NCBI RefSeq assembly: GCF_029223525.1
Contig: NZ_JARHTQ010000023.1
Location: 62,001-126,000, forward strand
Length of the DNA stretch: 64,000 bases
Direction: 5' to 3'
Source of the DNA: Streptantibioticus ferralitis
Lineage (GTDB): Bacteria > Actinomycetota > Actinomycetes > Streptomycetales > Streptomycetaceae
The stretch's first letter is position 1. Every line of letters begins with the position of its first letter. The position numbers and the translations under genes were made by a program. This document shows positions 23,776 to 41,321 of the stretch, one piece after another. Under the pieces are notes generated by a model. It was not told the origin of the DNA. It worked only from the letters and a program-made list of their open reading frames with translations, and did not search any database.

Positions 23776-25632
23776 CTACGGGAGGAACGCGCCGAGGTCG
23801 CCCGGCAGCGTCTCGACAAGTAGGGCTCGGTCGAGATAGTGGTTGCCGCGTTCGCAGGACGTCTCAGCGGCGAAGAGGCAGGCGTGGCAGGCCGCCCCGT
23901 GCAGGTGGCCGTGGACACGTGGGTCATGCTCCGCGCACATCGGGTCGGAGCTGCACAGCCGGGCTTCCTCGAGGGCTTGGCCGATGACGGGATCGAGCCG
24001 GTTATGGTGGCCTAGCGAGACCAAGCCACCCAGGGTGCCTTCGCTGTCCGGCGCCGCCGTGTAGAGCAGGACCCCGGCCATGGGGCGTTTCCCGGAACGG
24101 GCGTAGACGCGTTCGGCGATGCCGGACGCCCCGTACCCGCACTCGAGTGCGAACTGGCGGATCAGTGCGTGGGCAAATGTGTGGAGCAGCACATAGCGGA
24201 TGCCGGGCCACCGCGGTTCGATCCCTCGGGCCAGGCACCATGTGTGGTGGGCCGCTCTCAGGGTCCGTTCCCGAGCGGCGACATCGGTCCGCTTCTCCCA
24301 CTCTGCCAGCCGGTCTTCACGGAAGGCGAGGAAAACTCCTTCACCGCGCAACTCCGCGCAGGGCACCCAGGTTGGCTGCTCCTTGCTCAGCGGTGCGGCC
24401 GGTTCGATGAGCTCGTCCTCCGGGGAGAGCCACTCGGGTGGATCTATGCGGGTGAATCCGGTGAGGGCGGAGACCTCCCGCAGCCGGTGGACCAGCACGA
24501 CCCGCTCCAGCCATGCCGAGGCGGAGGCTGGGACCGGTTCAGGCTCAGTGGTGAAGTCGGGCAGCGAGTACCGGTTGAGTGCGGTGAACGCCTGCCACTC
24601 CGGCGTGGCGAGGTCGAACTCCTCGTCGTCGCTCGCTTGCTGTGCGGGAGCTGCGGTTTTTGCGGTTGCCTCGGCCCTGACCGCGTTCCAGACCTGTTCG
24701 ACGCCGTACTGCTCCAGCTCCGGCCAGCATGCCAGGGTGGGCAGCAGCATCTTGGCGGCCTCGGGAGGAACAGCGGCAAGCAGCTCCAGTGAATGCCAGT
24801 GCTCGCGTACGGCCTGGGCGAGGGGTTCCTCGGCACGTGGCAGGCTGAACACTCTCAGTTGCGAGGCGAACCAGCTGTTGGTCGCTCCGAGCGCGATGGT
24901 ACGGACCTTCTCGTCGCATGTCTCGAAGGTGCCCAGGTGGGGGTGGTGACCCCGGCAGGCGGGAAGTTCCTGCTCGCCGCGGGTGCCCATCGCCTCGGCC
25001 ATGGAGCGGGCCTTCACGTCATTGCAACTGCATGTGACGAACAGGTTGGCGGCTTCACCGGTGGTGCCGCGCTCCACGAGGCTGAGGGTGCACTCGGCCG
25101 GGGCGTCGGCGCCGCGGTGGACGAAGTACTGCCAGGGGAAGTCGTCCATGTGTCCCGCCGGGCACGCGACAAGGAAGCGGGCGGGGACCGCGGTGGGACG
25201 GCGGCGGCCTGTGCTGTAGCAGTTGTGGGCGTAACGGGTGTTTTCCGGGCGGAGGATGTGCTCCTCCAGCTCGAAAAGGCCGGAGGAAGCGGGGGAGAGG
25301 ATGCCGCATTGCTCGCGGGAGCAGCGCAACCAGCGGGGGAAGAGCGCCACTGGGACGCCGACCCTGGTCCAGTCCCCGAACGGATCCGAGGTCTCCTGGA
25401 GATACGGCGGAGTGCGCAGGGTGGTGACCTGGGGGCCCAACCGCCTGCGCACCGCGGCGAGCAGCCGGTCCTCGGTCAGCGGCGCGGCCTGTTGCAGCTC
25501 CCAGTGATCGAGGCCCAGCACCATGGTGGAGAGGTTGGGAAGATCGGTGACCGCTCCGACGCCGTAGGTGTGGAGGAGTTGGCTGGGACGGAGTTCGCCT
25601 ACGCGAAGGGGACCGTTGGCGGGTGCGGTCAT
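23776..25632 (-). CDS. drmB: DISARM core protein DrmB (DUF1998)
   Basis: Product of 618 residues. The N-terminus has the family pattern VGELRPSQLLHTYGVGAVTDLP. Cysteines at 104 and 109, in FLVACPAGHMDDFPW, and in FVTCSCNDV could bind zinc. The C-terminal DUF1998 part contains HTFAHALIRQFA, GVLLYTAAPDSEGTLGGLV, CSSDPMC (about 560), and ACHACLFAAETSCERGN (about 580-592). In DISARM phage defence DrmB forms a complex with the helicase DrmA that recognises incoming DNA. Its start overlaps the drmA stop by four bases. The usual next gene, drmC, is absent: tuf faces it from 94 bases away. Confidence 0.92.
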   Translation of the reverse strand: MTAPANGPLRVGELRPSQLLHTYGVGAVTDLPNLSTMVLGLDHWELQQAAPLTEDRLLAAVRRRLGPQVTTLRTPPYLQETSDPFGDWTRVGVPVALFPRWLRCSREQCGILSPASSGLFELEEHILRPENTRYAHNCYSTGRRRPTAVPARFLVACPAGHMDDFPWQYFVHRGADAPAECTLSLVERGTTGEAANLFVTCSCNDVKARSMAEAMGTRGEQELPACRGHHPHLGTFETCDEKVRTIALGATNSWFASQLRVFSLPRAEEPLAQAVREHWHSLELLAAVPPEAAKMLLPTLACWPELEQYGVEQVWNAVRAEATAKTAAPAQQASDDEEFDLATPEWQAFTALNRYSLPDFTTEPEPVPASASAWLERVVLVHRLREVSALTGFTRIDPPEWLSPEDELIEPAAPLSKEQPTWVPCAELRGEGVFLAFREDRLAEWEKRTDVAARERTLRAAHHTWCLARGIEPRWPGIRYVLLHTFAHALIRQFALECGYGASGIAERVYARSGKRPMAGVLLYTAAPDSEGTLGGLVSLGHHNRLDPVIGQALEEARLCSSDPMCAEHDPRVHGHLHGAACHACLFAAETSCERGNHYLDRALLVETLPGDLGAFLP

Positions 25633-28600
25633 GGCTTCTCCTGCGGATCATCAGTGGCCGCTGAAGGGCACGGGCGAGGCGTGAACGGCGGTTCTCCGGT
25701 GGCGTCTTGGGCGATGTCGCCCACGAACATCAGGTTCACCGGTGGCTCGACCTCGCGAAGTGAGGTGGGACAGGTCATCGGCTGCCAGTGAGAGCCGTCG
25801 GGCTCCTTCAGCAGTCCGGTGACGTCGCCTTGGCGCCGCGTGCTGCGGTAGCCGAGCACCGCGCCGGGAGCCTTGCGGCGGCGCTCCCATTCCTTCAGGC
25901 GCAGCCCGAGCCGCCTGCCGAGCTCGGCGCCTACCCGATCGTCCTCGGTGACGGCCTCGGCGCGCCGCTGGAGGTAGCGCACCACGTGGTCGGCGAGTTC
26001 GCCGTGGGTGTCGAAGAACTGGGCGCCGCGGTTGGCGTTGTACTCCTGCTTCAGATCGCGGACGAGTGCGACGAGAACGCCGGTGAGCCCTCGGTCAACG
26101 GCACGGTCGGCGAAAGGAGTTACCGAGAGGGCTTCCACGTGCTGGTAGACGGTCGCGTGGAAGGATTCGAAGGTCTCATAGTGCGAAAGATCACGCGGAC
26201 GCGCCCAGTTGAGCACGTTGAAGACCAATCCTGGGGCCCGGCGGCCCACTCGGCTGGTGGCCTGGATGTACTCGGCGGTGGACTTCGGCTGGTTGTTGAC
26301 GATCATCACGCCGAGCCGGGAGACGTCCACGCCGACGGCGATCATGTTGGTGGCCAGCAGGACGTCGAGCGGTCGGGGGGATCCCTTCTTCGGTCCGGTG
26401 AAGGACAGTTCGAGTTTTTCCAGGATGTCCGGAATGGCGTCCGAGGACATCCGGGAGGTGAGTTCCGCGGGTTCGCCGAGGAAGCGGACGGCCAGGCCCC
26501 GCCCATCGGCCCTGGTGAGACGGGTGGAGATGTCGTCCTCGACGAGTCGCCGCATGCCGCCCAGATCGCGGAGGCTGTTGAAGTAGCCGACCAGCGTCAT
26601 GTACGGGTCGGTGAGCTCGCCGTGCCCGTATCGGTCGTGGAGAAGCCTGGCGGCGGCGAGTTGGGCGACGTAGACGCGGATCGCCACCGACTTGGTGCGT
26701 ACGCCCTGGGCGCAGATGCCCACATAGCGGCGGCCCGGTGTGGCATCGGTGGACCTGCGGCGGGCGAAGAAGTTGTCCTCGGCGGTCAGACCGGGCGGTG
26801 GGAAGACGGCGGTCTTCCGCGCGAACAGGTCGTTGATCTGCCGTTCCGCGCGGCGGACGGTGGCCGTCGAGGCGATGACCTTCGGCCGCGCCGCACGCCC
26901 CGGCTCGATCTCCCAGGTGGCGAGCTTGTCGACGGCGGCCTCGTAGAGCCCGGTCAGTGAGCCGAGCGGACCGGAGATCAGATGGAGCTCGTCCTGGATG
27001 ATCAGGTCCGGGGGCCGGACCCGCGGTGCGTCGACGGTACGGGCCGGTGAGTGGTCGCCGTGGGCCGGGTGGCTGGCGCGTTCCCATTCGCTGTCTACGG
27101 CGTCGGCGGTGACATAGCCGTGTCGGGAGCACCGCCGGGCGACCTGGCCGAAGAGGGTCTGGGTCTCGCCCTTCCAGGGGAGTTGGGCGAACTTGTCGAC
27201 CGTCGCGATCAACAGGGTGGGCACCAGCCGGTAGATCTCCTCGTCGACCACGAGCACCGGCAGTCCCCGCTCGTCCGCAGGGAGATCGAAGGCGGCTGCC
27301 CCGAAGGGGCAGGAGAAGACATCGGGGCAGATGATGAAGGTGCGGCGCAGGGTCATGTCGACCGCGATGTCGCGTCCGGCGTCCAGCTTGGTGCCGCACC
27401 ATGGGCAACTGGTCAGCTGATGGGGCGAGCCGGTACCACTGCGGCGCCGGCGGCCCTTGTCCTGTCGGCGGTCCTTGAGCCAGCCGTTCGCCTGGTCCGT
27501 CGAGTTGGGGGTGACAGCGCCTCCCACCCACAGGCCGATCCGGAACGGGGTCCTTCCCCAGGTGTCCGGGTCGCAGCGGCGGATGGTCTCGCAGGCGCAG
27601 ATGAGCGCCGCGGCCCGTTGGAACTGCTGGATGGTCAGCAGCCGCAGGGTGTAGCGCATCAGAGCGGTCACCCCGTCCTCGGAGTTGAGCCCGCCCAGGG
27701 TTGGCCCGCACCGCCGGATCGCCATGGCGAACGCGGCGAGGCCCAGATAGGCCTCGGTCTTGCCACCACCGGTGGGGAACCAGAGCAGGTCCGCCAGTGC
27801 TTCGTCGGCGGAGCGTTCAGGGTGTCCCGGATCGGCGAGCGCGGGGAGGTTGAGCAGGAGGAACGCCAGCTGGAACGGGCGCCAGCTGCGGTTCTCCGGG
27901 ATGTCCACGGTGTCGACCGCGCTCTGGAGCGCGAGCTCCGGATCGTGTCTGCGGTCGGCGGCGGCCAGGGTGTGCACCCGCTGCCGCCACATGGCCTGGT
28001 TGGCGAACCGGAACGCCTTGAACGCCGCCTCCTCGGCGAGCAGTCCGATTCCCGCCTCGATGCGGTCGGCGGCCTCGGCTGCGCGCTGGAGATTGGTGCG
28101 CGCCTCCTCCTCGTACCCCGCCAGGCGCGCATCCGGGTCGTCGATGGTTCGCCCGGTCCGTTCGATCCAGGCGCGGTAGCCGTCGACCAGTGGCATCAGA
28201 GCGGTGCGCAGCTCCTCCTGCTCGCATTCGGCGAGGCGCTTCATGTCGAGAACGAGGCCGCGCAGTTCGACGAGGTCCGCGTCCGGTTCGCTGAGCGGAT
28301 CGGGTACGTCGGTGTGCGGGATCTCGTACGAGGGTGCGGCCTTGGTGGTGATCTCCACTGCCCGCAGCGGGTCCTCGGGGCTGGGCTCGGCGCGCACGCC
28401 CGTGCCGTGCCCGACCGCGAACTCGGGGTGGAAGCGGTAGGTCATCGCCAGGGACTTCCGCTCGGCGCGGTCGGCCGGGTCACCGCCGGTCTGGAGCTGG
28501 GGTCGCCGGGGCAGGAAAGGGGCCGTGTCCGGCAGACCGCTTACTGCCAGCTCGACCTGGAAGAGCCAACTGCGCGCGTCTCGGCTTGACTTGGCCTCCT

Positions 28601-29246
28601 GGCCGTTGACGAGGAAGAGCGAGACCAGCCAGTCGCCTTGATGGCGCCGGGCCCGGCCACGCACCACCACGCCGGGGAACTCCTCGGCGAGGACCGCCCG
28701 CGGCTCGATGACCCCGTCTTCCAGCAGCTTGACGGTCACCCACCCGGAGAATGCGGTCCGATGCCAGACCTGGCCGCCGGTGTGCTCCGGGTCCTTGGAG
28801 TGCCCCAGCTCGTACCGCGCCCAGGAGCACCGCACCCGTAACTCGTCCATCGCGCCGTCAATCCGGGCGGTCAGCCCGAGCGAGGAGGGCTGAAGACTGG
28901 GAACGTTGGGCGCGTCCGGGTCGGGATCGCCCTCCTCGGCGTCCGGAACCGCGGCGACCACCGCCTCGTCGAGCGTCCCCGGCTCGACGTGTAGTCCGGC
29001 GAGTTTGATGCGACCGTCGTAGGCGACGCCGCCCGGGGCGAGGCGGCCGATGATGTAGTGGTCGGTCGGATTGCCGACCAGCTCTTCCTCGGCGCCGCCG
29101 ATCGGCCCGAGCAGGTCCGTGACGACGAGGTCCGCGAGTTCGTCTCGGAGCTGCTGGGGGGTGGGTGTATAGAGCACCGGCTGGGTGTGCGGGCGCTGGG
29201 CGTCGTCCGGCGGTGCGGGGGTGCTTTCTTGGCTCTCCTGCGTCAC
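25629..29246 (-). CDS. drmA: DISARM core helicase DrmA
   Basis: Product of about 1205 residues from the GTG at 29246, behind AAGGTGAG; an ATG at 29333 gives a longer frame but overlaps the divergent promoter region. Superfamily 2 helicase motifs appear in order: Walker A DLLWFPTGGGKTEAYLGL (near 490), DEXH DLIIQDELHLI (near 750), VIASTATVRRAERQI, and motif VI QATSRVGRRAPG (near 997) preceded by LLATNMIAVGVDVSRLG. DrmA is a DNA-stimulated translocase that, with DrmB, blocks phage DNA. An upstream WCGT cysteine pair (CPWCGTKLDAGRD) may bind zinc. It is the first gene of a two-gene minus-strand operon. Confidence 0.92.
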   Translation of the reverse strand: MTQESQESTPAPPDDAQRPHTQPVLYTPTPQQLRDELADLVVTDLLGPIGGAEEELVGNPTDHYIIGRLAPGGVAYDGRIKLAGLHVEPGTLDEAVVAAVPDAEEGDPDPDAPNVPSLQPSSLGLTARIDGAMDELRVRCSWARYELGHSKDPEHTGGQVWHRTAFSGWVTVKLLEDGVIEPRAVLAEEFPGVVVRGRARRHQGDWLVSLFLVNGQEAKSSRDARSWLFQVELAVSGLPDTAPFLPRRPQLQTGGDPADRAERKSLAMTYRFHPEFAVGHGTGVRAEPSPEDPLRAVEITTKAAPSYEIPHTDVPDPLSEPDADLVELRGLVLDMKRLAECEQEELRTALMPLVDGYRAWIERTGRTIDDPDARLAGYEEEARTNLQRAAEAADRIEAGIGLLAEEAAFKAFRFANQAMWRQRVHTLAAADRRHDPELALQSAVDTVDIPENRSWRPFQLAFLLLNLPALADPGHPERSADEALADLLWFPTGGGKTEAYLGLAAFAMAIRRCGPTLGGLNSEDGVTALMRYTLRLLTIQQFQRAAALICACETIRRCDPDTWGRTPFRIGLWVGGAVTPNSTDQANGWLKDRRQDKGRRRRSGTGSPHQLTSCPWCGTKLDAGRDIAVDMTLRRTFIICPDVFSCPFGAAAFDLPADERGLPVLVVDEEIYRLVPTLLIATVDKFAQLPWKGETQTLFGQVARRCSRHGYVTADAVDSEWERASHPAHGDHSPARTVDAPRVRPPDLIIQDELHLISGPLGSLTGLYEAAVDKLATWEIEPGRAARPKVIASTATVRRAERQINDLFARKTAVFPPPGLTAEDNFFARRRSTDATPGRRYVGICAQGVRTKSVAIRVYVAQLAAARLLHDRYGHGELTDPYMTLVGYFNSLRDLGGMRRLVEDDISTRLTRADGRGLAVRFLGEPAELTSRMSSDAIPDILEKLELSFTGPKKGSPRPLDVLLATNMIAVGVDVSRLGVMIVNNQPKSTAEYIQATSRVGRRAPGLVFNVLNWARPRDLSHYETFESFHATVYQHVEALSVTPFADRAVDRGLTGVLVALVRDLKQEYNANRGAQFFDTHGELADHVVRYLQRRAEAVTEDDRVGAELGRRLGLRLKEWERRRKAPGAVLGYRSTRRQGDVTGLLKEPDGSHWQPMTCPTSLREVEPPVNLMFVGDIAQDATGEPPFTPRPCPSAATDDPQEKP

Positions 29247-29389: not shown

Positions 29390-29971
29390 ATGACAGAGGG
29401 GCTGACCGAGGGGATCCCACGTCAAGGTCCTTCCCGATTAGAGACGTTGACCATGGGGGGCGCCGGCCACAAAGGCGACTTCGGCGAGCAGTTCGTACAG
29501 GCCTTGGCCATCACCGCGAACCTTGATGTATCCCCCAAACCGTGGCGCGACCGACGGGGGATCGACTGGGAGTTGACGTACCCAGGGCGACTGGGCGCCC
29601 GGCGGCACCCCCGGATCGTCGCCCAGGTGAAGTGCTGGACGCCGAACGAGCCGCAGAACGAAGACAGTTGGCGTTACCCCCTCAGAGTGCACAACTTCAA
29701 CCTGCTTTCCGGCCGCGACTGGTACGAGCCGCGCTTCCTCTTTCTGGTCGTCGTCCCCAAGGACGAGGCGGAGTGGGTCGATGTCACCCCGGAGAGACTG
29801 CTGCTGCGCCAGGCCGCGTACTGGGCTTGCTTCCATGACGACCCGCCGCTGACCCACCTCAAAGCGGACACCCAGCGCAAGGTCCCCGTGCCCAAGGCGA
29901 ACCTGCTGACCGTCCCGGCCCTGCACCGCCTGTTCGGCCAGGAGTTCCGCCACAAACTGGGGATGTCATGA
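29390..29971 (+). CDS. DUF4365-like putative PD-(D/E)XK nuclease
   Basis: Product of 193 residues from the ATG at 29390 (weak GGGGGGA site); the ATG at 29453 (MGGAGHKGDFGEQF) is a credible alternative. The core GDFGEQF (Glu33), RRGIDWEL (Asp59) and AQVKCW (Gln79-Val-Lys81) is the pattern of a PD-(D/E)XK nuclease fold as in DUF4365. VHNFNLLSGRDWYEPRFLFLVVVP supplies the next strand and helix. I infer a DNA endonuclease. It is divergent from drmA and coupled to the next gene by an ATGA overlap, inside a DISARM locus that has no drmC, so it is the leading candidate for the missing nuclease activity. Confidence 0.8.
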   Translation: MTEGLTEGIPRQGPSRLETLTMGGAGHKGDFGEQFVQALAITANLDVSPKPWRDRRGIDWELTYPGRLGARRHPRIVAQVKCWTPNEPQNEDSWRYPLRVHNFNLLSGRDWYEPRFLFLVVVPKDEAEWVDVTPERLLLRQAAYWACFHDDPPLTHLKADTQRKVPVPKANLLTVPALHRLFGQEFRHKLGMS

Positions 29972-31143
29972 CCCTCATCTCCGAAGCCGAGTTCGACCAG
30001 GCCGCCGAACTCCACCCGCGCCACCTCCAGCGCTATCTGCGCTCCCGGGGCTGGACCTTCGTCGACGACTACGGGCGAGGTCAGCTGTGGGAGCTTGCTG
30101 CCGCTAGTGTGCGGGGCGAGCCGTACGAGGTGATGGTCCCGTTGGACCGTCGGCCTCGCGACTACCCCGACCGCGTCTGCGATCTGCTGGAAGCCCTGGC
30201 CGCCGTAGAGTCCCGCCGACCTGGCGAGGTACTGCGTGAGATGGCCCTGCCGCCCGCCGACTGGCAGTATCTGCGGCTCCTCCCACCCGGACCGTCCGGC
30301 ACTGCGCCCCTCGTCGACCTGGTGCCCGCCCTCACCGGCCTGAAGGACCTGATGACAGCCGCCGCAGCGGCGGCCTGTGCGCCCGAGCCACAGCCCGTCC
30401 AACCCGCACAGAAGCCACAGCGGGTAAAGGACTTCGTCGCGTCGGTTCGGCTTGACCAGACACGGGTGGGCAGCTACGTCCTCGCCGCCCACACCCCCCT
30501 GCCCGAGCCGTCGACGCAAGGGGTCCTTCCCTTCGACGACTCCGCCGAGGGCGCCGCCCGGGAACCCTTCGAGCGGCTGGTCTCCCGCCGCCTGTACGCG
30601 GCCACCTGGTGCGCCTACCAGGCCGCGGAGCGCACGATCCGTGAAGACACCCTGGACGACTTCGCCCAGTACGCCGCCGTGGGCCTCTCCGCCAATCTGT
30701 GCGAGGCACTGGTTCGGATCGCTGGCGACGAAGCACGCGGCTACGAGCTGAGCTTCGCCTGGGCCGCCGAACTGCCGGTAGGGCACGAGACCCCGTCGGT
30801 AGCCGTCACCCGCCCGCTGCTGCGTGCCTTGGAGGCGGGCGCCCAGGATCTGCGGGCGCGCTTGAGCCAGCGGGGCGTCGCCGTCCGCGGCAACGTGGTG
30901 CGCCTCGACCGCACCCCCACCGCCGGCCCCGGCGAGGTCACCGTCCTGGGCAGCGCCGAGGGAGAGGAGGACCGCCGCCCCCGCCGCTACCGCGTGGTGC
31001 TGCAACAGCGCGATTACGCGCAGGCGGCCAGCGCCCATCAGCGGGGACTTGAGGTCACGGTCCGTGGCGACCTGGTCGTTCGCGGCGGACACGCCCGGCT
31101 GGACCCGGTCACGGGGTTCGAGACGCGGCAGGCAGCGGACTGA
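29968..31143 (+). CDS. Unknown partner protein of the DUF4365-like gene
   Basis: Product of 391 residues; I do not recognise the family. The start ATG overlaps the previous stop (ATGA). Residues 1-110 look like a mixed alpha/beta domain (YLRSRGWTFVDDYGRGQLWEL, EVMVPLDRRPRDYPDRVCDLLEALA). A Pro/Ala/Gln-rich linker lies near 140-150 and residues 190-290 are helical (FERLVSRRLYAATWCAYQAAE). The C-terminal 100 residues are beta-rich (VRLDRTPTAGPGEVTVLG, RRYRVVLQQRDYAQAASAH, LEVTVRGDLVVRGGHARL). No HxK phospholipase-D motif, Walker motif or membrane segment is visible. Tight coupling suggests it regulates, guides or neutralises the nuclease-like protein. Confidence 0.78.
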   Translation: MTLISEAEFDQAAELHPRHLQRYLRSRGWTFVDDYGRGQLWELAAASVRGEPYEVMVPLDRRPRDYPDRVCDLLEALAAVESRRPGEVLREMALPPADWQYLRLLPPGPSGTAPLVDLVPALTGLKDLMTAAAAAACAPEPQPVQPAQKPQRVKDFVASVRLDQTRVGSYVLAAHTPLPEPSTQGVLPFDDSAEGAAREPFERLVSRRLYAATWCAYQAAERTIREDTLDDFAQYAAVGLSANLCEALVRIAGDEARGYELSFAWAAELPVGHETPSVAVTRPLLRALEAGAQDLRARLSQRGVAVRGNVVRLDRTPTAGPGEVTVLGSAEGEEDRRPRRYRVVLQQRDYAQAASAHQRGLEVTVRGDLVVRGGHARLDPVTGFETRQAAD

Positions 31144-31156
31144 TCCCGCCACATGC

Positions 31157-32083
31157 CTATGGCTGTTCGGTGGGCTTGAGCTGGTCCTCGGCGAACAGGT
31201 TTTCGGCGTTGGTGGTGGTGATCGCGCGGTCGAACCAGCGGTTGAGGGTGTCGAGGTCGGTGCAGCTGGTGATCAGCAGCCGCGCGCTGGCGGAAACGGA
31301 GATACCACGTCGTTCCAGCAGATGGAGGATCGACTCGGTGAGGGCTTTTGCCTTGCCCGCGGCTTCACCTTCGGCTTTCCCTTCGGCTTTCCCTTCAAGG
31401 TAGTACTCTTCGACGATCGTGCCTTGGCCGGGGAAGTAGTTGCGCATCAGTTGCCTCCACGTGTGTCGCGCCAGGGTGTCGCCCAGGCCGATGTCCAGCA
31501 TCTGGATGAAGTACGTGCGGTCGTCCTGGTCGAGGGAGCCCATAGCGTGCGCCAGCGCTTCCAGTATGGGGTCCTCGTCACCGTTCGGACCGTGTAGCAG
31601 GGCGCAGAAGGCGGCCAGCGTCGGGTTCTGGGCAGCCTCGTCCCAATCGACGATCACCGGGACATTGCCGGGACCGATGACCAGCGGATGTGTGCTGAGC
31701 GCGGTCCAGTCGTTCACGCCGCATCTGAAAGGTCCTGCGGCCCACTCCGCGGTGGCCTGGTCCCGGCACACGACCAGGAGCAGAGCGGGCCTTCTGTACT
31801 TGGCTTGCAGATGGGCCAGGTAGTACGTCCAGCTCGCTGCCTTGGCCGGATCGCGCCGCCCCTGTGCCTCGATGGCGAGCACAAAGTCGTCTTCGGGCGA
31901 CTGGATCCGGAGCACGGTGTCCACGCGTCGCTCCAGCGGCCGGATTTCTGTGACGTCGGGCGTCACCACCTCAACGGCTGCCTTCTCGGCCACCGGCACG
32001 TTCAGGATACGGAAGACCGAAGCCAGCAGTTCCGGCCTGTCTTGGAAGACCCGGTGAGTGACTTCATGTGGTGAAGTGACCAT
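31157..32083 (-). CDS. Rpn/COG5464-like putative nuclease
   Basis: Product of 308 residues from the ATG at 32083; upstream extension lacks structure. RRVDTVLRI (Asp55) and FVLAIEAQGRRD (Glu72, Gln74) fit the D...ExQ active site of recombination-promoting nuclease-like and related PD-(D/E)XK proteins, followed by WTYYLAHLQAKYRRPALLLVV. Near residue 230 is a Gly-Lys-Ala-Glu repeat (LEGKAEGKAEGEAAGKAKA) typical of the family, then a helical tail. Many copies occur in Streptomyces chromosomes and they often travel with mobile DNA. It faces the unknown partner gene with 13 bases between them. No clear ribosome binding site was seen. Confidence 0.72.
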   Translation of the reverse strand: MVTSPHEVTHRVFQDRPELLASVFRILNVPVAEKAAVEVVTPDVTEIRPLERRVDTVLRIQSPEDDFVLAIEAQGRRDPAKAASWTYYLAHLQAKYRRPALLLVVCRDQATAEWAAGPFRCGVNDWTALSTHPLVIGPGNVPVIVDWDEAAQNPTLAAFCALLHGPNGDEDPILEALAHAMGSLDQDDRTYFIQMLDIGLGDTLARHTWRQLMRNYFPGQGTIVEEYYLEGKAEGKAEGEAAGKAKALTESILHLLERRGISVSASARLLITSCTDLDTLNRWFDRAITTTNAENLFAEDQLKPTEQP

Positions 32084-32190
32084 GTGACGGACGCTATGGA
32101 ACGAGTGTGGCGCTTGGACTGATTTCCGTGGAGCGTTCACTCGTTCTAGGTGGCGGTTGAAGCCTGAAGTTGACCTGCATGCCTGGGTGT

Positions 32191-32622
32191 TCAGAACGTG
32201 AGGGGGAGTTCGGCCCAGATCGTTTTGCAGGGGGCTGGGCCTGGGATGACGCCCCAACGGGTGGCAAAGGCGGCGACGAGGAGAAGGCCGCGGCCGGACT
32301 CCTCCTCCGGACCGGGGCTGTGGTGCGGTGCGGGGAGGCGTTCGGGGCGGGCGTCGATCACCTCGATACGCAGGGTTTCCGCGGTGGCGGTGAGCGTCAG
32401 ACGAAAGTCGCGGCCCGGTACGCGGGCGTGCAGCGCGGCGTTGGCGGCGAGTTCGGCGACCACCAGAGCGGCACCCTCCAACGGCAGGCCCCAGCAGCGG
32501 AGTTGCTCGGTGGCGACGAGGCGCGCGAGGCGGGCGCCTTTGCGGGTGGCGGAGAGCTGAACGCTGAACGTGCGGGCGGGGGGTGCTTCGGCGGCCCCAG
32601 GGTGGGTGATTTCTCGGTTCAC
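32191..32622 (-). CDS. ATP-binding regulator (HATPase_c, RsbW/AbaA-like)
   Basis: Product of 143 residues from GTG. The GHKL-type ATPase fold is indicated by the N box VVAELAANAALHA (Asn61), Asp90 in RIEVID, and the lid EEESGRGLLLVAAFATRWGV (110-124). There is no histidine kinase domain. Stand-alone proteins of this class occur in Streptomyces next to XRE and DUF397 genes (WhiJ-like clusters) and are thought to act as anti-sigma or antagonist switches. The XRE gene lies divergently 159 bases away. Confidence 0.85.
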   Translation of the reverse strand: MNREITHPGAAEAPPARTFSVQLSATRKGARLARLVATEQLRCWGLPLEGAALVVAELAANAALHARVPGRDFRLTLTATAETLRIEVIDARPERLPAPHHSPGPEEESGRGLLLVAAFATRWGVIPGPAPCKTIWAELPLTF

Positions 32623-32781: not shown

Positions 32782-33681
32782 ATGGGGACGAACGGCGGCG
32801 GCGCGGGCGCTGGCACAGGGAGCGGTGGCTACACGACGGACGGTGCGGACGGGCCGGGGTGGGACCCGGGAGAGGAGGACGACTCCGGCCCCATGGTGAA
32901 GGCCCTCGGCCGCCAGCTCAAGATGTGGCGGGAGTCGGCGGGGCTACGGCAGGCCGAGTTCGGGGCGCAGATCGGGTACGGTGCGGACATGGTCGCGGCG
33001 GTGGAGGGCGGGCGGCGCATCCCCAAGCCGGAGTACCTGGAGGCGGCGGACCGGGTGCTGGGGGCGGGCGGCCGGATCGAGGCGATGCAGCGGGACCTGG
33101 AGGAGGCGCGGTACCCGAAGAAGGTTCGGGATCTGAAGAAGTTGGAGGCGGAGGCGGTCGAGCTGTGTGTCTACAGCAACCACACGATCCATGCGCTGCT
33201 ACAAACCGAGGAGTACACGCGTGCACTGTTCGGTATGCGGCGCCCGCTGCACCCCGAGGAAGTCATCGAACGGAACGTCGCGGGCCGGATGGCGAGGCAG
33301 GAGATCCTCGACAGGTCGAAGCATGTGCCGGTCTTCAGCTTCGTGCAAGAAGAGGTGACGCTGAGCCGCCCGCTCGGGGGCAGAATGGTGAAGCGGCAGC
33401 AGCTCGAACGGCTGTTGGAAGTAGGCCAGTTCCGGAACGTTGAGATTCAGGTGATGCCTACGGACCGGGAGGATCATGCGGGACTGGCTGGCGGGTTCCG
33501 CTTGTTCAAGCTCCATGGAGGCAAGACCTTTGGGTACAGCGAGGGACAGCACATCACCCGCCTGATCACCGAGCACAGAGAGGTGCAGTCCCTGGAGATG
33601 CAGTATGGGATCATCCGGGCGCAGGCTCTCACGCCTCAGGAGTCGCTGGCCTTCATCGAGAAACTGCTGGGAGAGACATGA
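32782..33681 (+). CDS. XRE-family regulator with DUF5753 (WhiJ/Scr1-like)
   Basis: Product of 299 residues; the start at 32782 follows GGGAGG and skips an upstream frame with no structure. A Gly/Asp-rich N-terminal tail of about 35 residues precedes the helix-turn-helix (LGRQLKMWRESAGLRQAEFGAQIGYGADMVAAVEGGRRIP, about 42-81). The DUF5753 part follows, with LCVYSNHTIHALLQTEEYTRALF, RMARQEILDR and VQVMPTDREDHAGLAGGFRLF-like sequence. It probably binds its own promoter and works with the small DUF397 protein encoded next, to which it is coupled by ATGA. Confidence 0.92.
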   Translation: MGTNGGGAGAGTGSGGYTTDGADGPGWDPGEEDDSGPMVKALGRQLKMWRESAGLRQAEFGAQIGYGADMVAAVEGGRRIPKPEYLEAADRVLGAGGRIEAMQRDLEEARYPKKVRDLKKLEAEAVELCVYSNHTIHALLQTEEYTRALFGMRRPLHPEEVIERNVAGRMARQEILDRSKHVPVFSFVQEEVTLSRPLGGRMVKRQQLERLLEVGQFRNVEIQVMPTDREDHAGLAGGFRLFKLHGGKTFGYSEGQHITRLITEHREVQSLEMQYGIIRAQALTPQESLAFIEKLLGET

Positions 33682-33884
33682 CCCGCATACCCTCTGCCGG
33701 AGACGGCTCCGCGCGGTGGTTCAAGAGCAGCTACAGCACTAACGAGCACGGGTCCGATTGTGTCGAGGTCGCACTCGTGCCAGGCGCCATCCATGTTCGG
33801 GACTCGAAGGACCCCCACGGGCCGCAGCTCATGTTCACACCGGAGGCTTGGGCTCGCTTCGTGGCCTTCGCGTCCGAGCGCTGA
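33678..33884 (+). CDS. DUF397 protein, partner of the XRE regulator
   Basis: Product of 68 residues with the DUF397 signature: WFKSSYSTNEHGSDCVEVAL, then HVRDSKDPHGPQLMFTPEAWARFV. DUF397 proteins pair with XRE/DUF5753 regulators throughout Streptomyces and modulate them, in some cases as toxin-antitoxin-like pairs. The start overlaps the regulator stop by four bases. A hairpin follows the stop. Confidence 0.95.
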   Translation: MTRIPSAGDGSARWFKSSYSTNEHGSDCVEVALVPGAIHVRDSKDPHGPQLMFTPEAWARFVAFASER

Positions 33885-33896
33885 CCTCTAACCATC

Positions 33897-33933: not shown

Positions 33934-33939
33934 ATGCCG

Positions 33940-36900
33940 TTAGAAGAGGGCACCTGGCGGGCTGAACAGCCCGTCTTGGAAGGCCCCTTGCTCCTCCCTG
34001 GGCTTCGGTACCTTCGGCTTTGCCTTCGTGGCGGTCCTCTTCTTGGCCTTTGAGGAATGCAGCCCGGCTTCCTGTTCCTGCTTGTAGCGAGCGTGGTTCA
34101 ACTCCAGCAGCCGATCTAGGACTTCGGTCTGGGCGGTGGGGTCGATGGTGAACCGCTTGCCCTGCCGGGTCTCCTGGAAGCCGTGCTTCAGGGTGAGGTC
34201 GCTCCACTCGTACGCCTCGGCGACGGCCTCGTCCACCTCGATGTGCGCCTCGCGGAGGGCTTGGATGTCGGCGGCTTGCTCGGACTCGTTGTGCACGAGG
34301 TTGTAGAGCTTGGTCAGACCGATGTTTCGGGCGGCCATCAGCTCCCGCTGGGCGCTCTCCAGATCGGAACCCGCGGCGGCGAGGCGGCTGGTTTCCTCGG
34401 GGAGCGCGAAGGTGTCGAACACATCTGAGGGCGAGTAGCGTAGGTCCCCCTTCAGGCTAGACCCCCATTGAACAGCCCAAAGGTAGTGAAAAGAACTGGT
34501 CAAGAAGGCCAAGCGTGCCAGTGAATCAGTTGCAAATATCACTGTTGCTTCGCTGATGACCTGATCCGCCCTGCAGCGGACGTGCATGGCAGTACTGCTG
34601 ACGCGAGCAATCACGATCACCTGCTCAAGGTCGGCGATTGCCTCGTACAACTGCGGCGCCCTCTCCGCGTATTGCCACCAACGTTGCCGTCTGGCTGCGC
34701 GCTTGTTGAGCGCCCGCACCGGTTTGACCTCCCGCTCCACGATCGCGAACACGTCCTCATACGTGGCCGCCTTCTCCTCCGACCAGTCGTGGAAGTTGAT
34801 GACCCACCGGCTCGCCGAGCAGTCCGGGCGGGAATTCAGGTCCTCACCGTTGAGATACGGGAACAGCACGTCCTTGTTGCGCGGGTCCTTCGCGATCAGG
34901 GCCCGCGCCTCCTCCGGCTGGACGATGAAGCCCTTCCCCAGTACATACGACCCGATGTAGGACTGTCCCGCATTGGCCGCCAACCGAAACGGCTTCCCCG
35001 TAACCCGTGACTGCGGGTCCAGCCCCGGCGTTATGCCGCGCACCTCGTCCCCGTCCAGCACCGGTGTCTCCGCCTTGCCCGGACGGCCCCCGAGCCACAG
35101 CAGTGAGACCTCCAACGCGGCTGAGCCCGGCCACGGTTGGGACTTGATCGCGCGGTAGACCTTCCACCCGGCTGCCGTCGCCCGGTCGAGGCCGACCTCC
35201 CGGGTATCCCCTTGCGCGATGGTGTTGGTTGCGATGATGCCCGTCCGCCGCCCCGGCGCCAGCATGAGGTTCCGTAGCAGGAAGTACGCGCACAGGTCGG
35301 CGCTGCCGCGCGTTCCGCCTCCTATCCGGTTGACCAGGTACTCGCGGTAGTCCGTCCCCAGGTTCCCCGTGAGCTTCTGGCCCCCGCTGAACGGCGGATT
35401 CCCCACGACCGCGTCGAACCCCGCCGCACCGCCCACGCCCATGATCTCCGGGAACTCCAGCGGCCAGTGCAGTGGCCTTATGGCTTCCGTCCGCGAAGGG
35501 CCCCGTAACCAGCCGTCCACGATCTCCCGGGCCCCAACGTCAGCGGTAGAGCCTTCGCCTTCCTCCATGGCGGTGGCGACCAGCCCGGCGACCGCCGCCA
35601 ACCGGTTCTCGTACGCCGCGGTCTTCGCGTCCTCCTTCGCCGTGCGGAAGGAGGCGCGCCTGCCGCCCACGTTCCGCTCGCCGGTCAGGTCCTCCGCCTC
35701 CGCGTCGGAGATGCCCTCGGCCGCGAGCGCCGCGCCCACGACCGCGTCGGCCGCCAGGCGGAGCCGTTCGGTCAGGGACTCGGCCTCGCGTAGCTTCGCC
35801 GCCTTGGCGCGGACCTCGCGGATGTCGTTGACCGGGGTGGCCTCGATCTGCCGCCGCAGGTCGGCCGCCTGCGACAGCAGCGATTCGGTCGCCTCCAGTG
35901 CCCGTGACACCTCGTCGCTCAACTGCCGTGCGCCGGAGTCGAAGTGGAACGCCCGGATCTGCTCGACGTCCAGGACTCCGACCAGCGAGTCACCGCAGCG
36001 CAGGGCGTGGTCAAGGAAGGAGAACGGCCGCCCCTTCGCCAGCGTCACCAACCACAGGGAGAGTTTGGCCAGCTCCACGGCCATCGGATCCCGGTCCACC
36101 CCGTACAGGCAGCGGTCGGCGACCAGCCGCCGGGCCACCCGCAGCAGCTCGTCCCGGTCGTCCTCGGCCACGTCGCGCCGGATGGTGTCCGGCAGGCCGT
36201 CGCGTACCCATGCCTCGACGACCCGGTCGGCGAGGTAGCGGCAGGCGGAGACGAGGAAGGCGCCGGATCCCATCGCGGGGTCCAGGACGCGCAGGCGCAG
36301 CAGCTCATCCGCTGACTTCGCCTTCCACACGCCTTGTTCGGCGCCTTCTTGCGGACCGGGGGAGTAGCAGAGCGGCGCGAGGGTGTGCTCGACGACCTCC
36401 TCCGCCAGTTCCTTCGGCGTGTAGTGGGTACCGGTGTTGCGGCGGTCGCCGGAGCGGACCATGACCACGGAACCGGCCGGGAAGACCATCGGCTGGCCGC
36501 GCAGGTCGTCGCGGACCAGACCGGCGAACGGGGCGACGCGGGCGGCCAGGGCCTCGTCGTTGTCGCAGGCGGCGTCGAGATCGGCGGTGACCGCGCCCGC
36601 GCCGGAGGCTTCCAGGGCGCGGCGGATCTGGAGCGGGGTGGCGCCGGTGGCCTCTTTCAACTCCCTTTCCAGCGTGCCTGCGTGGCTCCACTCCTCCAGG
36701 TGGGGAAGTTCCAGTACGGCCTCGTACTTGCCCACCAGCCCCAGGTACGGCTCCCCGGCCCGGACGCAGCTGTACTCCAGCAGGCCTTCGTAGACGTGGC
36801 CGATCTGTTCGACGTCGAGGCCCTTGTACGAGAGTGCCTCGCGGCCCTTGCCCTTGCGGCGCAGGGTCAGCAGTGCGTCCAGGATCTCGTAGACGACCCG

Positions 36901-38085
36901 GTCGGTGACCTTCGCCTCGGCGAGCCAGGGGAAGCGGGTCGGGTCGAAGAGTGAGCCGCCGTAGGCCGGGATCCACAGCTCGTCGTGGAGGCAGCCGCCG
37001 TGGATCGCGGCGAAGAGGGCGAGCAGACGCGGCCATGCAGCGGCTCGGCGGTCGCCCAACTCGCCGCCGTGCAAGGCACGTTCGGCCTCCAGAGCGGCGT
37101 GGAGCGGGCCGACGGCGTAGGAGTCGGCGTAGAGGGGGTCGTCGGCGGGTAGGAGTCGCTGCTCTTCCGCGTAGAGGAGGAAGACCAGGCGCATCATCAC
37201 GGTCAGCGCGCTCTCGTAGAGGCGCTTGCCCTCGACGTCGGCCAGCAGTGTGCGGCCCGCCTCGCGGTCGAGGCGGGAGAGTTCGGCGACCAGCAGGGCG
37301 ACCGCCTCGCGGACCTGCCTGCCGAGGGTGTCGGTGACCTCGGACTGCTGCTCGACGGTGCGGGCGAAGAGCGCGGCGAGCGAGGTGGTGTGGGCGCCCT
37401 GCGCGTCGCGGGGCGGGAGCGCGGCCCGGCGGGCGTGGAGGAGGGTGGCGAACGACCGTAACAGCAGGGGTTCTTCGAGCCACAGGTCCGCGTCGAAGAC
37501 GGCGAGGGTGGTGGCCTCCTTGGGGCGGGCGTGCACCAGGGCCCATTCGCGGCCGTTGCTGAGCAGGGCGAGCGGGACGCCGCGCCAGCGCGCGAGGTCC
37601 GCCGCCCGGTCGACCAGCGAGGCGGTCTCGCCCTTGGCGCGGGTCAGCGACTCGTCCCACTTGGCCCGGAAGTACAGGACGCGTGTCACCGGCCCGTCCT
37701 GGCTGGGGCCGATGAGTACGGCGTCCGGGGTGTCGGCCGCGCCGCGCAGCGAGACGGGGAGGGCGGCGCCCTCTCGCAGACCCGGGGTCCAGCCCAGCAG
37801 TTCGCCGAGGACCAGCCGCTCCCAGCTGTGGGCGAGGAGGGCCGGGTCCTCCTGGACCTCCGCCCAGGCCTGTCGGACGCGGGACCTGGTCTGGTCGGGC
37901 ACGGTGTCGAGGCCCTGCGGGAAGACCTCGGTGAGCAGCGGCAGCGCGACGAACGGGCCGTCGGGGCGGAGCAGCCGCAGCCACTCCTCGTGCTGTTCGG
38001 CGGGGGTGGGGATGTGGCCCTTGCCGGGTAGACGACGGGACAGGGCGCCGGGGCCGGGGCGGCGGTCGGGCGACGGGCGGGCCAT
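33940..38085 (-). CDS. drmMI: DISARM adenine methyltransferase DrmMI
   Basis: Product of 1381 residues, within the size range of class 1 DISARM methylases. The N-terminal 550 residues form a long alpha/beta region (target recognition or accessory). The SAM-binding motif I is VLDPAMGSGAFLV near residue 603, and motif IV is NPPF near 895 (FDAVVGNPPFSGGQ), the N6-adenine or N4-cytosine type. GRRTGIIATNTIAQGDTREVGLD, then QVIVIARVSSTAMHV and SSFHYLWAVQWGSSLKGDLRY in the C-terminal part recall target-recognition regions of type II/BREX-like methylases. It should mark host DNA as self. Its start codon shares a base with the drmD stop (TGATG). Confidence 0.93.
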   Translation of the reverse strand: MARPSPDRRPGPGALSRRLPGKGHIPTPAEQHEEWLRLLRPDGPFVALPLLTEVFPQGLDTVPDQTRSRVRQAWAEVQEDPALLAHSWERLVLGELLGWTPGLREGAALPVSLRGAADTPDAVLIGPSQDGPVTRVLYFRAKWDESLTRAKGETASLVDRAADLARWRGVPLALLSNGREWALVHARPKEATTLAVFDADLWLEEPLLLRSFATLLHARRAALPPRDAQGAHTTSLAALFARTVEQQSEVTDTLGRQVREAVALLVAELSRLDREAGRTLLADVEGKRLYESALTVMMRLVFLLYAEEQRLLPADDPLYADSYAVGPLHAALEAERALHGGELGDRRAAAWPRLLALFAAIHGGCLHDELWIPAYGGSLFDPTRFPWLAEAKVTDRVVYEILDALLTLRRKGKGREALSYKGLDVEQIGHVYEGLLEYSCVRAGEPYLGLVGKYEAVLELPHLEEWSHAGTLERELKEATGATPLQIRRALEASGAGAVTADLDAACDNDEALAARVAPFAGLVRDDLRGQPMVFPAGSVVMVRSGDRRNTGTHYTPKELAEEVVEHTLAPLCYSPGPQEGAEQGVWKAKSADELLRLRVLDPAMGSGAFLVSACRYLADRVVEAWVRDGLPDTIRRDVAEDDRDELLRVARRLVADRCLYGVDRDPMAVELAKLSLWLVTLAKGRPFSFLDHALRCGDSLVGVLDVEQIRAFHFDSGARQLSDEVSRALEATESLLSQAADLRRQIEATPVNDIREVRAKAAKLREAESLTERLRLAADAVVGAALAAEGISDAEAEDLTGERNVGGRRASFRTAKEDAKTAAYENRLAAVAGLVATAMEEGEGSTADVGAREIVDGWLRGPSRTEAIRPLHWPLEFPEIMGVGGAAGFDAVVGNPPFSGGQKLTGNLGTDYREYLVNRIGGGTRGSADLCAYFLLRNLMLAPGRRTGIIATNTIAQGDTREVGLDRATAAGWKVYRAIKSQPWPGSAALEVSLLWLGGRPGKAETPVLDGDEVRGITPGLDPQSRVTGKPFRLAANAGQSYIGSYVLGKGFIVQPEEARALIAKDPRNKDVLFPYLNGEDLNSRPDCSASRWVINFHDWSEEKAATYEDVFAIVEREVKPVRALNKRAARRQRWWQYAERAPQLYEAIADLEQVIVIARVSSTAMHVRCRADQVISEATVIFATDSLARLAFLTSSFHYLWAVQWGSSLKGDLRYSPSDVFDTFALPEETSRLAAAGSDLESAQRELMAARNIGLTKLYNLVHNESEQAADIQALREAHIEVDEAVAEAYEWSDLTLKHGFQETRQGKRFTIDPTAQTEVLDRLLELNHARYKQEQEAGLHSSKAKKRTATKAKPKVPKPREEQGAFQDGLFSPPGALF

Positions 38086-41000
38086 CAGGGGTGGTCTCCT
38101 CGGGCGAGAGCGGACGGGACGAGGAAGGTGACGGCGACCGGGAACCAGCGCGGGGTGGGGTCGGCCCAGCGGCGGCGCAACGCTGCGGTTTCCGACTCGA
38201 CGAGGGCGGGGACGGCACGCACCCGTTCGTGAAGCGCCTCGCGGTCGGCGCGCAGCTGGCGGCGCTCGTCGTCAATCTCGAAGAGCGAGGCCTGCTCCCA
38301 GTAGCCGTGGTCGTCGAGGCGGGCGCGGATGGAGCGCTCCAGCTCGGCGAGGACGTTCGTCACGCCCTCGACCTCCTCTTCGCACCGTTTGGCGAGCAGG
38401 GTCTGGAGGCTGCGGAACCGGGTGTTGGCACGGGTGCGCAGCGCACGCGAGAGACGGTCCTCCAACTCCGGCCAGCGTTCGGCGAGTCGGTGCCGTATCT
38501 CCTCGGCGGGCGGCTCGTCGGTGGCGGCGGCCAGCCAGGCGTCCACCTCGTCCTGACGGGCGGTCGACAAGGTTCCGGCGGTGATGGCGCCGCCTGCGGT
38601 GATGATCTCCTCGTGGAGCCGGGCCCCGCCCCTGCCGGAGATCACCACCCGACCGTGGGCGACCACGGCGGGAGTACGGAGCAGGTCGCCGGGGACCACC
38701 CGGGCGGTGACCCGGCTCAGCCGCGCCTCCCTGCCGCCGGACCACAGCTCGGCGCGGAGCAGCCGCAGGCACATCTGGACCAGTCGGTGGCCGAGGTGGA
38801 GCAGGACGACGTCGGTACGGCCGCGCGCCGCCAACTCGTCGAACACCACGGGGCGTTCGTCTCCGGTGAGCGGATGGCGTAACCCCTCGTTGCGGGCGTG
38901 GGCCCAGGCACCGGGGAGCTCGGGGAGGCGGAAGCAGCGGGCGGCGCCGTTCGACCCCGGGTCGGGGACCGGTAGCAGATCCTTGCGGTGGGCCAGCTGT
39001 AGCGCGGCGCGGACGACCTGTTCGACGGTCTCGGGGGTGAGGTGGAGGGCGTCGCGGCTGCCCGCCAGTTCGGCGACGAGTTTCTCCAGTTCGCGGGCGA
39101 GGTCGCGGTCGACCTTCAGGACCGCCTTGCCGGAGCGCTTGCGTATCTCCGTGTCGGCGGTGGTCCAGTCGGAGCGGCGGCCCAGCATCTTCTGCTCGAC
39201 CTGCGCGGCGATCACCTCGCCTGCACTGCCCAGGTCCTCGCGGATCTGCTCGGTCTTGCGGGCGGCAACGGCGAGGAAGTGGAGTTCGTCCTCAAGGGTG
39301 CCGTCGGCGTGGTCGGAGTCGGTACCGGAAGCGTCGAAGCCCTGCCAGCCTTCGGGCACGAAGTGGTAGACGTCCACCTGGTCGGCGCGCTGTCCGTGAC
39401 GGTCGACACGGCCGTTGCGCTGCTCCAGCCGGTTGGGGTTCCACGGGATCTCCCAGTGGAGGAGGCGGTGGCAGTGGGCCTGCAGGTTGATGCCCTCGCT
39501 GGCGGCGTCAGTGGCGAGCAGGATACGGACGGGGGAGAGGGCAGGATCCTCCTGGAAGACCGTCTTGACGTGCTCGCGTTCATCCTGCCGCTGGCCGCCG
39601 TAGAGTTCCGCGATCCGCTCCCTCGGGTACCCCGCGGCGATGAGCCGTTCCAGCAGCCAGCGCTGGGTGTCGCGGTACTCGGTGAAGACGATGACCCGGT
39701 CCGGATTCCACTCGCCCTTCGGACCTTCCGGGCAGGCGATCCCGTCGAGCCATTCGCGGAAGGCGGTGAACTTCGCGTCCGGGCGATGGGACGCCTTGCG
39801 GGCCCAGACGGACAGCTCCCTGAGCCGAGTGTGTTCTTCGGCGTCGAGCGGGCGCGACGCCTCTCGTACGGCGGTGAGGGCGCGCTCGGCAGCCTCTGCG
39901 TGCTCGTCGTCGCTCTCGGCGGTCTCCTCGACCTGGTCGATCAGCGGGCGGAGCACCTTCTCGCTGGCAGCGGGTTGCCGGGTGGCGGGCTGCTGCCGGG
40001 TCATCGTCTCCAGGTGGACATCGACGGTTTCGGCAAAGGCCTTCGGCGAGGACAGGAACCGCTTCTTCAACAGCGTGGTCACGAACTCGCCGGCAGCGCG
40101 CTCGGCGCGGCTGGCGGCGCCGTCGCGACGGGAGCGGGCATAGGCGGTCAGACTCTCGTAGGCCGCCCGCGCCTCATCGGTGTACCGCACCTCAAGCGCG
40201 TGCGGGACGCGCTTGGGGAAGCGCGGCTTGCCGTCCCAGCCAGGGGGCAGCTCGGACTTCAGGCGGCGCACCATCACCCGTCGCAGCTGCTCGTCCGAGG
40301 GCTTCACACCGCGGGCGAAGCGGTGGTCGTCGAGGAGCTCCAGCAGCGCGGTGAAGGATTCCAGGAAGCCGTTGTGGGGAGTGGCGGAGAGGAAGAGGCG
40401 GTGCTCGCAGTGCGGAGCGAGGGCCCGGATCGCCTTGGTGCGCTGCGAGTCGACGGCGTACCTGCCGGTGCCCGAGGGGGCGCAGGTGTGGACTTCGTCC
40501 ACGACCAGTAGGTCGAAGGCCCGGGGGTACTCCGGTACGTGGGGAAGTACCTCGCGGAGCATCCGCAGTGGGCGCTCCCGTTTCAGCCAGTCCACCGAGA
40601 CGATCAGCCGTGGAAAGTGCGTCCAGGGATTGGCGTACAGGCCCCTGGAGCGTCGCAGTTCGCGCAGGAGCGCGCTGTCGACGATACGGAAGTCCAGGCC
40701 GAACTTGTCCCGCATCTCGTCGCGCCACTGGAGGGTGAGTCCGGCGGGGCAGACGATCAGCATGCTGCGGGCCCGGTGGCGGAGCATGAGTTCCTGCATG
40801 ACCAGGCCCGCCTCGACCGTCTTGCCGAGGCCGACGTCGTCGGCGATGAGCAGGTTGGTGCGGGGCATGGACAACGCGCGGACCACCGGGTCGAGCTGGT
40901 ATTCCTGGATCTCCACGCCGGAACGGAAGGGGGCCTGGAGGGCGGTCCGGTCGGCCGAGGCGATGGCACCCCAGCGGACCGCGTCGAGGAAGGCGTCGAG

Positions 41001-41321
41001 CCGGTCCGGAGCATCGAACCCGGCGGCGGGGGTGGGCAGCGCGTACTGGTCGTGGACGAAAGGCGACTGTTCGAGCTCCCACACCACACGCAGTTCCTCA
41101 TCGCGTGCGTCGTCTTCGACGGAGACCAAGGTCACCAGATGAGACGGTACGCCCTGCGCGGCGCGTGCAGGATCTTCTGCGGCGACGGAGGAGCGGGTCA
41201 CCTCCGTGACCACCCACTGGCGGTTCCTTACTGTGACGAGTTGCCCGGGGGTGGGGCTCGTAGACTCGGCTTCGGCCTGTCCGGTGTCCTCTGCTAAGTG
41301 GATGGTCACGCTCGCCCCCAT
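38085..41321 (-). CDS. drmD: DISARM class 1 SNF2-like helicase DrmD
   Basis: Product of 1078 residues. Helicase motifs: [18 protein letters not shown] (near 160), [23 protein letters not shown] (near 274), [39 protein letters not shown], and [15 protein letters not shown] (near 635). This is the SNF2 arrangement of DrmD, which defines class 1 DISARM together with DrmMI. The ATG at 41321 lacks a clear binding site; GTG at 41309, preceded by GGGGGCGAGC, is an alternative. Probably the first gene of the drmD-drmMI operon, read away from the rpsJ promoter region. Confidence 0.93.

What the first reader, a model, noticed from the sequence alone, without database searches (positions are those of the whole stretch)
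23776..41321. Class 1 DISARM locus without drmC, between tuf and rpsJ
drmD (38085-41321), drmMI (33940-38085), drmA (25629-29246) and drmB (23776-25632) are recognisable from motifs. DISARM class 1 is established as drmD, drmMI plus the core drmA, drmB, drmC. No phospholipase-D (HxK) gene is visible anywhere in the window, and the usual drmC position after drmB is occupied by the tuf terminator. The system is also split: drmD-drmMI and drmA-drmB are separate coupled operons with about 4.7 kb between them.
Basis: partly seen in the sequence, partly recalled or inferred. Interest (0 to 1): 0.8.

Follow-up and report, generated by a model that had tools for sequence, protein, structure and literature searches.

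The report
DISARM phage defence missing drmC
This bacterium carries an intact-looking DISARM anti-phage system that has lost its usual nuclease gene, but the same locus holds a second candidate defence pair with a nuclease of another type; most of this is a variation on a known system.

Summary
DrmD, DrmMI, DrmA and DrmB score as DISARM proteins and fill the tuf-rpsJ interval. No drmC is in the window or, over the model's cut-off, in the 99% complete genome. It is not a conserved drmC-less type: all 40 fetched relatives (of 42) with a window-grade DrmA have drmC behind drmB, and the window is nested among drmC carriers, so this lineage lost it. Absence of drmC is not new in principle: Bravo et al. 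2022 call it dispensable and often missing. The 4.7 kb 'split' is a standing feature of this clade. Three separate drmC absences (window, L145, L168) sit in loci with PDC-M02, too few to test. tuf-rpsJ is a variable site. Best reading: a probably working class 1 DISARM that lost a dispensable nuclease at its tuf edge. That PDC-M02 stands in for DrmC is an untested hypothesis.

The parts
38085..41321 (-). drmD, SNF2-like helicase (1078 aa)
   Evidence: PADLOC E 0; NF038317 1324 bits, cut-off 610; GLGKT and DEVH motifs
33940..38085 (-). drmMI, adenine methyltransferase of MmeI/type IIG kind (1381 aa)
   Evidence: PADLOC DrmMI 1610 bits; Pfam Eco57I, MmeI_Mtase, MmeI_TRD over cut-off; NPPF motif
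25629..29246 (-). drmA, YprA-type helicase (1205 aa from ATG; GTG at 29333 possible)
   Evidence: NF038325 1322 bits, cut-off 950; PADLOC E 1.7e-303; GGGKT and DELH motifs
23776..25632 (-). drmB, full length (618 aa)
   Evidence: NF038324 profile 1-604 of 604, 693 bits; aligns over residues 1-618 with several sisters
23683..23775 (.). tuf-drmB junction, where sisters have drmC; holds a hairpin (about 23713-23742, read by eye) and has no room for drmC
   Evidence: sequence; no drmC match; tuf-drmC distance 2.4-2.7 kb in L149 and L142. The terminator scan did not list this hairpin
29390..29971 (+). PDC-M02A: DUF4365 nuclease-fold protein (193 aa), divergent from drmA
   Evidence: Pfam DUF4365; PADLOC PDC-M02A E 2.4e-60; D59, Q79, K81 conserved; SPARDA nuclease fold
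29968..31143 (+). PDC-M02B partner protein (391 aa), start overlaps the PDC-M02A stop
   Evidence: PADLOC PDC-M02B E 1.4e-116; AlphaFold2 pLDDT 91.8; OB fold at 301-391
31157..32257 (-). uncharacterised protein (TTG start at 32257; start unsure)
   Evidence: no Pfam match; 44% identity in L061, also L118, L141, L144, L145, L147
32191..32622 (-). small HATPase_c_2 protein (regulator type)
   Evidence: Pfam; matches in all six DrmA-found sisters
32782..33681 (+). HTH_31/DUF5753 regulator
   Evidence: Pfam; matches in all six DrmA-found sisters
33678..33884 (+). DUF397-like small protein (label recalled; its own Pfam scan failed on coordinates, and was not repeated)
   Evidence: tblastn matches in all six DrmA-found sisters
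22489..23682 (+). tuf, left border of the insert (name recalled from sequence)
   Evidence: best match 86-97% identical in each of 23 genomes
41809..42117 (+). rpsJ, right border of the insert (name recalled from sequence)
   Evidence: one match in each of 21 genomes searched, own included

Best explanation
A class 1 DISARM system of a Streptomycetaceae clade, housed in the variable tuf-rpsJ interval, that lost drmC at its tuf edge and probably still works. Shown here: gene content, loss on this lineage, intact reading frames. Inferred from published DISARM work: DrmMI methylates adenine in host DNA; DrmA-DrmB, kept inactive by a trigger loop, load on unmodified DNA with single-stranded 5' ends, translocate and block phage replication, with DrmD assisting; degradation by DrmC is an optional last step. 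Embedded in the locus is a second unit, PDC-M02: a DUF4365 nuclease coupled to a partner with an OB fold, divergent from drmA and so perhaps expressed with it (inferred).
For: Family models. drmC absent from window and, over cut-off, genome. Window nested among drmC carriers on the DrmA tree. drmB complete. Pairwise dN/dS of the window's DrmB 0.11, 0.12 and 0.15 against three sisters; branch estimates for the window (DrmB dN 0.061, dS 0.514; DrmA 0.078, 0.420) close to those of two sisters with drmC. Helicase and methylase motifs present. The two same-genus genomes held have a near-empty site, gaps 702 and 527 bases against 18,129 here. [quoted passage not shown]
Against: No expression or phage data. 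The date of the drmC loss is unknown, so the selection estimate may cover mostly time before it, and dS is high (0.7-1.1). Five related loci are decaying (L107, L118, L151, L157, L206), so the window's could be at an early stage. Reads at the tuf-drmB junction could not be checked.
Confidence: 0.72

Rival explanations
1. PDC-M02 has taken over DrmC's role: DrmAB exposes foreign single-stranded DNA, the OB-fold partner binds it and switches on the DUF4365 nuclease, so drmC became redundant and was lost.
For: DUF4365 model: all 14 PDB matches with E<=0.001 are SPARDA chains; D..QxK residues present, Q and K being the presumed active-site residues in TmuRE (PMC10810196, passages). Partner has an SSB/PriB-like OB fold. 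The pair is in 5 of 6 window-type sisters found through DrmA and beside other DrmA-DrmB or DrmD-DrmMI loci (L105, L106, L109, L110; L165, L168). The three drmC absences on the tree (window, L145, L168) all have the pair.
Against: Most sisters keep both drmC and the pair. Only three absences; the independent-pairs test cannot reach significance, and L145 and L168 were found through the pair itself. In 79 loci of the partner, DISARM-type genes are in a minority. Twenty DrmA-DrmB loci of another kind (L220-L239) show neither drmC nor the pair. DNA binding by the partner is untested, and OB folds do many things.
Confidence: 0.13
2. The locus is in the first stage of decay: drmC has gone, the rest will follow, and DISARM no longer protects.
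For: Remnants of the same locus between tuf and rpsJ in G256 and G258 and beside tuf in S. anulatus; L151 broken into pieces.
Against: drmD, drmMI, drmA, drmB and both PDC-M02 genes are open and full length; motifs present; no sign of relaxed selection on the window branch.
Confidence: 0.13
3. (Compatible with the best explanation.) PDC-M02 and DISARM are two independent defence systems sharing an island; DISARM either needs no nuclease or borrows a host PLD nuclease, as Bravo et al. propose.
For: The genome holds other PLD proteins (9 PLDc_2 matches; best DrmC-model score 50 bits). PDC-M02 occurs without DISARM genes in the stretch in many phyla.
Against: The pair's constant place, divergent from drmA, in the clade.
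Confidence: 0.45

Closest known systems
Class 1 DISARM (drmD, drmMI, drmA, drmB, drmC; Serratia DrmAB studied by Bravo et al. 2022)
   Same: drmD, drmMI, drmA and drmB present
   Different: drmC absent from locus and, over cut-off, genome; drmD-drmMI and drmA-drmB separated by 4.7 kb holding regulators and PDC-M02
Window-type DISARM of Streptomyces (L058, L059, L061, L141-L152)
   Same: Same order where the stretch covers it, same kind of spacer genes, DrmA 67-79% identical in the unbroken ones
   Different: They keep drmC, except L145; L151 is broken; L059 lacks PDC-M02
PDC-M02 (PADLOC candidate two-gene system)
   Same: Both proteins match their models over nearly full length
   Different: Here embedded in a DISARM locus; in most loci seen it stands without DISARM genes, in some beside type I restriction-modification
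SPARDA nuclease-APAZ protein
   Same: Nuclease fold and QxK residues of DUF4365
   Different: 193 aa with no further Pfam domain; the neighbour matches PDC-M02B, not an Argonaute

Membership tests
Class 1 DISARM | DrmA and DrmB core pair | tested here: met
   NCBIfam over cut-off, PADLOC hits
Class 1 DISARM | drmD and adenine methylase drmMI (class 1 markers; definition recalled from Ofir et al. 2018) | tested here: met
   PADLOC E 0 for both
Class 1 DISARM | drmC (PLD protein) as third core gene | tested here: not met
   None in window nor over cut-off in the genome. Published work treats drmC as dispensable and often missing (passages), so this is filed as a drmC-less variant, not as a complete class 1 locus
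Class 1 DISARM | anti-phage activity with methylation-based self-recognition | not testable with these tools
   needs experiment
PDC-M02 | adjacent PDC-M02A and PDC-M02B genes | tested here: met
   E 2.4e-60 and 1.4e-116; genes overlap
PDC-M02 | proven anti-phage activity | not testable with these tools
   one search for the name found 0 papers; remains a candidate
DUF4365 / PD-(D/E)XK nucleases | conserved D and QxK residues and fold | tested here: met
   D59 and Q79 invariant in 32 aligned rows, K81 in at least 90%; Foldseek SPARDA, then EcoRV matches
SPARDA | APAZ fused to the nuclease, with a short Argonaute | tested here: not met
   DUF4365 protein is 193 aa with no other Pfam domain over cut-off; its operon partner matches PDC-M02B

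The most novel reading that the evidence does not exclude
DISARM in this clade works with an exchangeable effector: the embedded PDC-M02 nuclease and its OB-fold partner act on DNA opened by DrmAB, so that DrmC becomes redundant and has been lost at least three times.
Probability: 0.15. Interest if true: 0.7.

Novelty: new variant of a known kind. Interest (0 to 1): 0.42.

Why it matters
Which nuclease, if any, finishes DISARM's job is left open in print (Bravo et al. 2022, passages). Natural loci without drmC, with another nuclease pair kept next to drmA, offer a ready comparison: the same system with and without drmC, and with and without PDC-M02.

Tried and rejected
drmC elsewhere in the genome: rejected, no match over cut-off (six weaker matches). 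drmC remnant at the junction: rejected, 93 bases only. A conserved drmC-less class 1 type: rejected by 40 of 40 relatives; G111 and G155 of the 42 in that score group were not fetched. DrmMI with an active N-terminal nuclease as in type IIG enzymes: the expected E/D-x-K was not seen there (RAK) and the stretch is poorly conserved; not pursued. tuf-rpsJ as a defence-rich island: 67 open frames from the interval in eight genomes gave 27 PADLOC models at 1e-20, the 25 shown matched by one frame each, so the site is variable but not clearly defence-specific. Rfam: nothing over gathering score at 22000-42500. Promoter between drmA and PDC-M02A: the sigma-70 pattern scan found one site in 23000-42500, not there, 0.8 expected; Streptomyces promoters may not fit it. 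Link between drmC loss and PDC-M02: three pairs, not testable. PDC-M02B residues 1-300: barely tested, since the OB domain fills the list; not searched alone. Paper search for tuf, rpsJ, Streptomyces and insertion: 2 papers, neither on this by title and abstract start; DISARM with Streptomyces, defense systems and phage: 36 papers, 20 seen as a listing, none opened.

Errors of mine: two of eight frames (29677-31152 and 42277-43461, minus strand) were wrong frames, so the pair was first scanned against PADLOC only; one of 14 DUF4365 rows (L062) was off frame when the profile was built; the rpsJ query, used again, was off frame and was corrected; gene calls in scripts are by GC bias, not by a gene finder.

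Full report
Observation. The four genes are at the stated coordinates and open. PADLOC and NCBIfam identify DrmD, DrmA and DrmB; DrmMI rests on PADLOC and on Pfam's MmeI-type methylase domains. drmA-drmB and drmD-drmMI overlap, and 4.7 kb separates the two pairs. The locus fills the interval between tuf and rpsJ, 18,129 bases by tblastn ends.

drmC. A profile of nine relatives' DrmC proteins finds nothing in six frames of the window at E<=1. PLDc_2 has nine matches in the genome, none in the window. The curated DrmC model has six matches in this 99.17% complete genome, none over its cut-off of 133 bits; the best is 50 bits, in a frame with two PLD matches. drmB is full length, and 93 bases lie between its stop and that of tuf.

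A type or a loss? Of 394 genomes of the family, 151 match the DrmA model at E<=0.001 and 82 exceed its cut-off. By my count of the listing, 43 of these (own included) form the window's score group. I fetched 40 of the 42 relatives (L055-L094); all 40 encode drmC behind drmB, among them the six window-type sisters L055, L058, L059, L061, L062, L063. On a DrmA tree of 50 rows the window groups with L142, L061 and L141, which have drmC; the fewest changes of drmC presence are three (window, L145, L168). This was a quick tree, and its report warns that the places of L168 and L064 are unsure. L145 (Streptomyces sp. ODS25) has another gene directly behind drmB. L168 (Herbihabitans rhizosphaerae) has the PDC-M02 pair there, convergent; its drmD, if present, lies beyond the stretch. 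Of ten genomes searched with the DrmC model, six have a match over cut-off and four do not: those of L145 and L168, and G087 and G314. So the window lost drmC. The lower score group over cut-off holds 41 places; the 20 fetched (L220-L239) all show drmA-drmB and no match to drmC, drmD or drmMI in 16-19 kb. They are a different arrangement (last paragraph).

The spacer. From drmMI to drmA the window has a DUF397-type small protein, a DUF5753 regulator, an HATPase_c_2 protein, an uncharacterised gene, and the pair DUF4365 - 391 aa protein, divergent from drmA. The first three recur in all six sisters found through DrmA and the pair in five (not L059). Both pair proteins match PADLOC's candidate system PDC-M02 (A, E 2.4e-60; B, E 1.4e-116). 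One scan of genome contigs with the partner protein gave 143 relatives, of which the best 80 (79 loci) were kept, from several phyla by record title. DUF4365 was detected in 70 of the 79. Window-type DISARM genes are in 12 (L141-L152), DrmD-DrmMI in L154, L159 and L165, and DrmB-DrmA-DrmMI in L168; weaker DrmD- or DrmMI-like matches are in L163, L169, L172, L173, L175, L185, L190 and L216. The tree holds each locus once.

Site. In the two same-genus genomes held, tuf and rpsJ are 702 and 527 bases apart. Of the 20 relatives fetched, 16 show both genes, 362 to 17,243 bases apart; in four (L122, L125, L126, L134) tuf was not in the stretch. Comparing positions by hand, window-type DISARM lies between tuf and rpsJ also in G383, G143, G403 (L142), G410 (L149) and G409 (L148), and next to tuf in G405 (L144); for G409 and G405 I matched contigs by number, an inference. 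Others, such as L058, lie elsewhere. Remnants lie there in G256 and G258 and beside tuf in S. anulatus, L157.

Is it alive? Reading frames are intact and motifs present. Three-way estimates give the window branch dN 0.061, dS 0.514 for DrmB and 0.078, 0.420 for DrmA; L142 has 0.061, 0.470 and 0.062, 0.402, L061 0.061, 0.559 and 0.080, 0.372. This does not show that selection continued after the loss.

Literature. Bravo et al. [quoted passage not shown] The YprA preprint (PMC12458937, passages): DISARM typically includes DrmC, and the related BRIGADE systems have a PLD or a PD-(D/E)XK nuclease. The latter makes a PD-(D/E)XK stand-in plausible by analogy. A search for PDC-M02 gave no paper; DUF4365 with defense gave four, all on Argonaute systems by title. 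I saw no report of PDC-M02 inside DISARM in these searches; the library lacks most subscription journals.

Verdict. A new variant of a known kind. The missing drmC alone is a modest point; the embedded nuclease pair makes it testable whether DISARM's nuclease is exchangeable.

Aside. L220-L239 show a recurrent operon: a ~1600 aa protein (cluster in 20 of 20 loci; in L220 helicase domains and weak TmtA and Sacsin matches), a ~635 aa protein (17 of 20; UvrD helicase in L220), drmA and drmB. It looks like a separate DrmAB-based system.

Noticed in passing
L220-L239 (20 loci, for example L220:4540-16404): Recurrent operon of a ~1600 aa helicase protein (weak TmtA and Sacsin matches), a UvrD helicase, drmA and drmB, with no drmC, drmD or drmMI match in the stretch; possibly a separate DrmAB-based defence system in Streptomycetaceae.
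   Followed up: partly
L042:7428-18913 (own genome, G000:C18): Second drmA-drmB pair in the window's own genome, flanked by two genes with UvrD-helicase-type matches and, on the other strand, a 1205 aa protein with sigma-70 regions and an MzaA match; no drmC match.
   Followed up: partly
L154, L159, L165: PDC-M02 pair directly upstream of drmD-drmMI on the same strand; next to it a UvrD-like helicase and a 1000 aa protein matching Orf5, HEC-06 and SspE models (scanned in L154 only).
   Followed up: partly
L169, L172, L173, L175: PDC-M02 pair followed by a DrmD-like helicase and a distant DrmMI-like gene, with no drmA or drmB match in the stretch.
   Followed up: partly
L107, L118, L157, L206, L151: Decaying copies of the window-type locus, three of them by tuf; the site seems to see repeated gain and loss.
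   Followed up: partly
Leptospira phage LE1 protein Q6NE06 (viral structure library): Full-length structural relative of PDC-M02B in a phage (E 1.3e-23, TM 0.63); whether a DUF4365 gene lies beside it was not looked at.
   Followed up: no
window 31157-32257: Uncharacterised gene with relatives in L061, L118, L141, L144, L145 and L147; no Pfam match.
   Followed up: no
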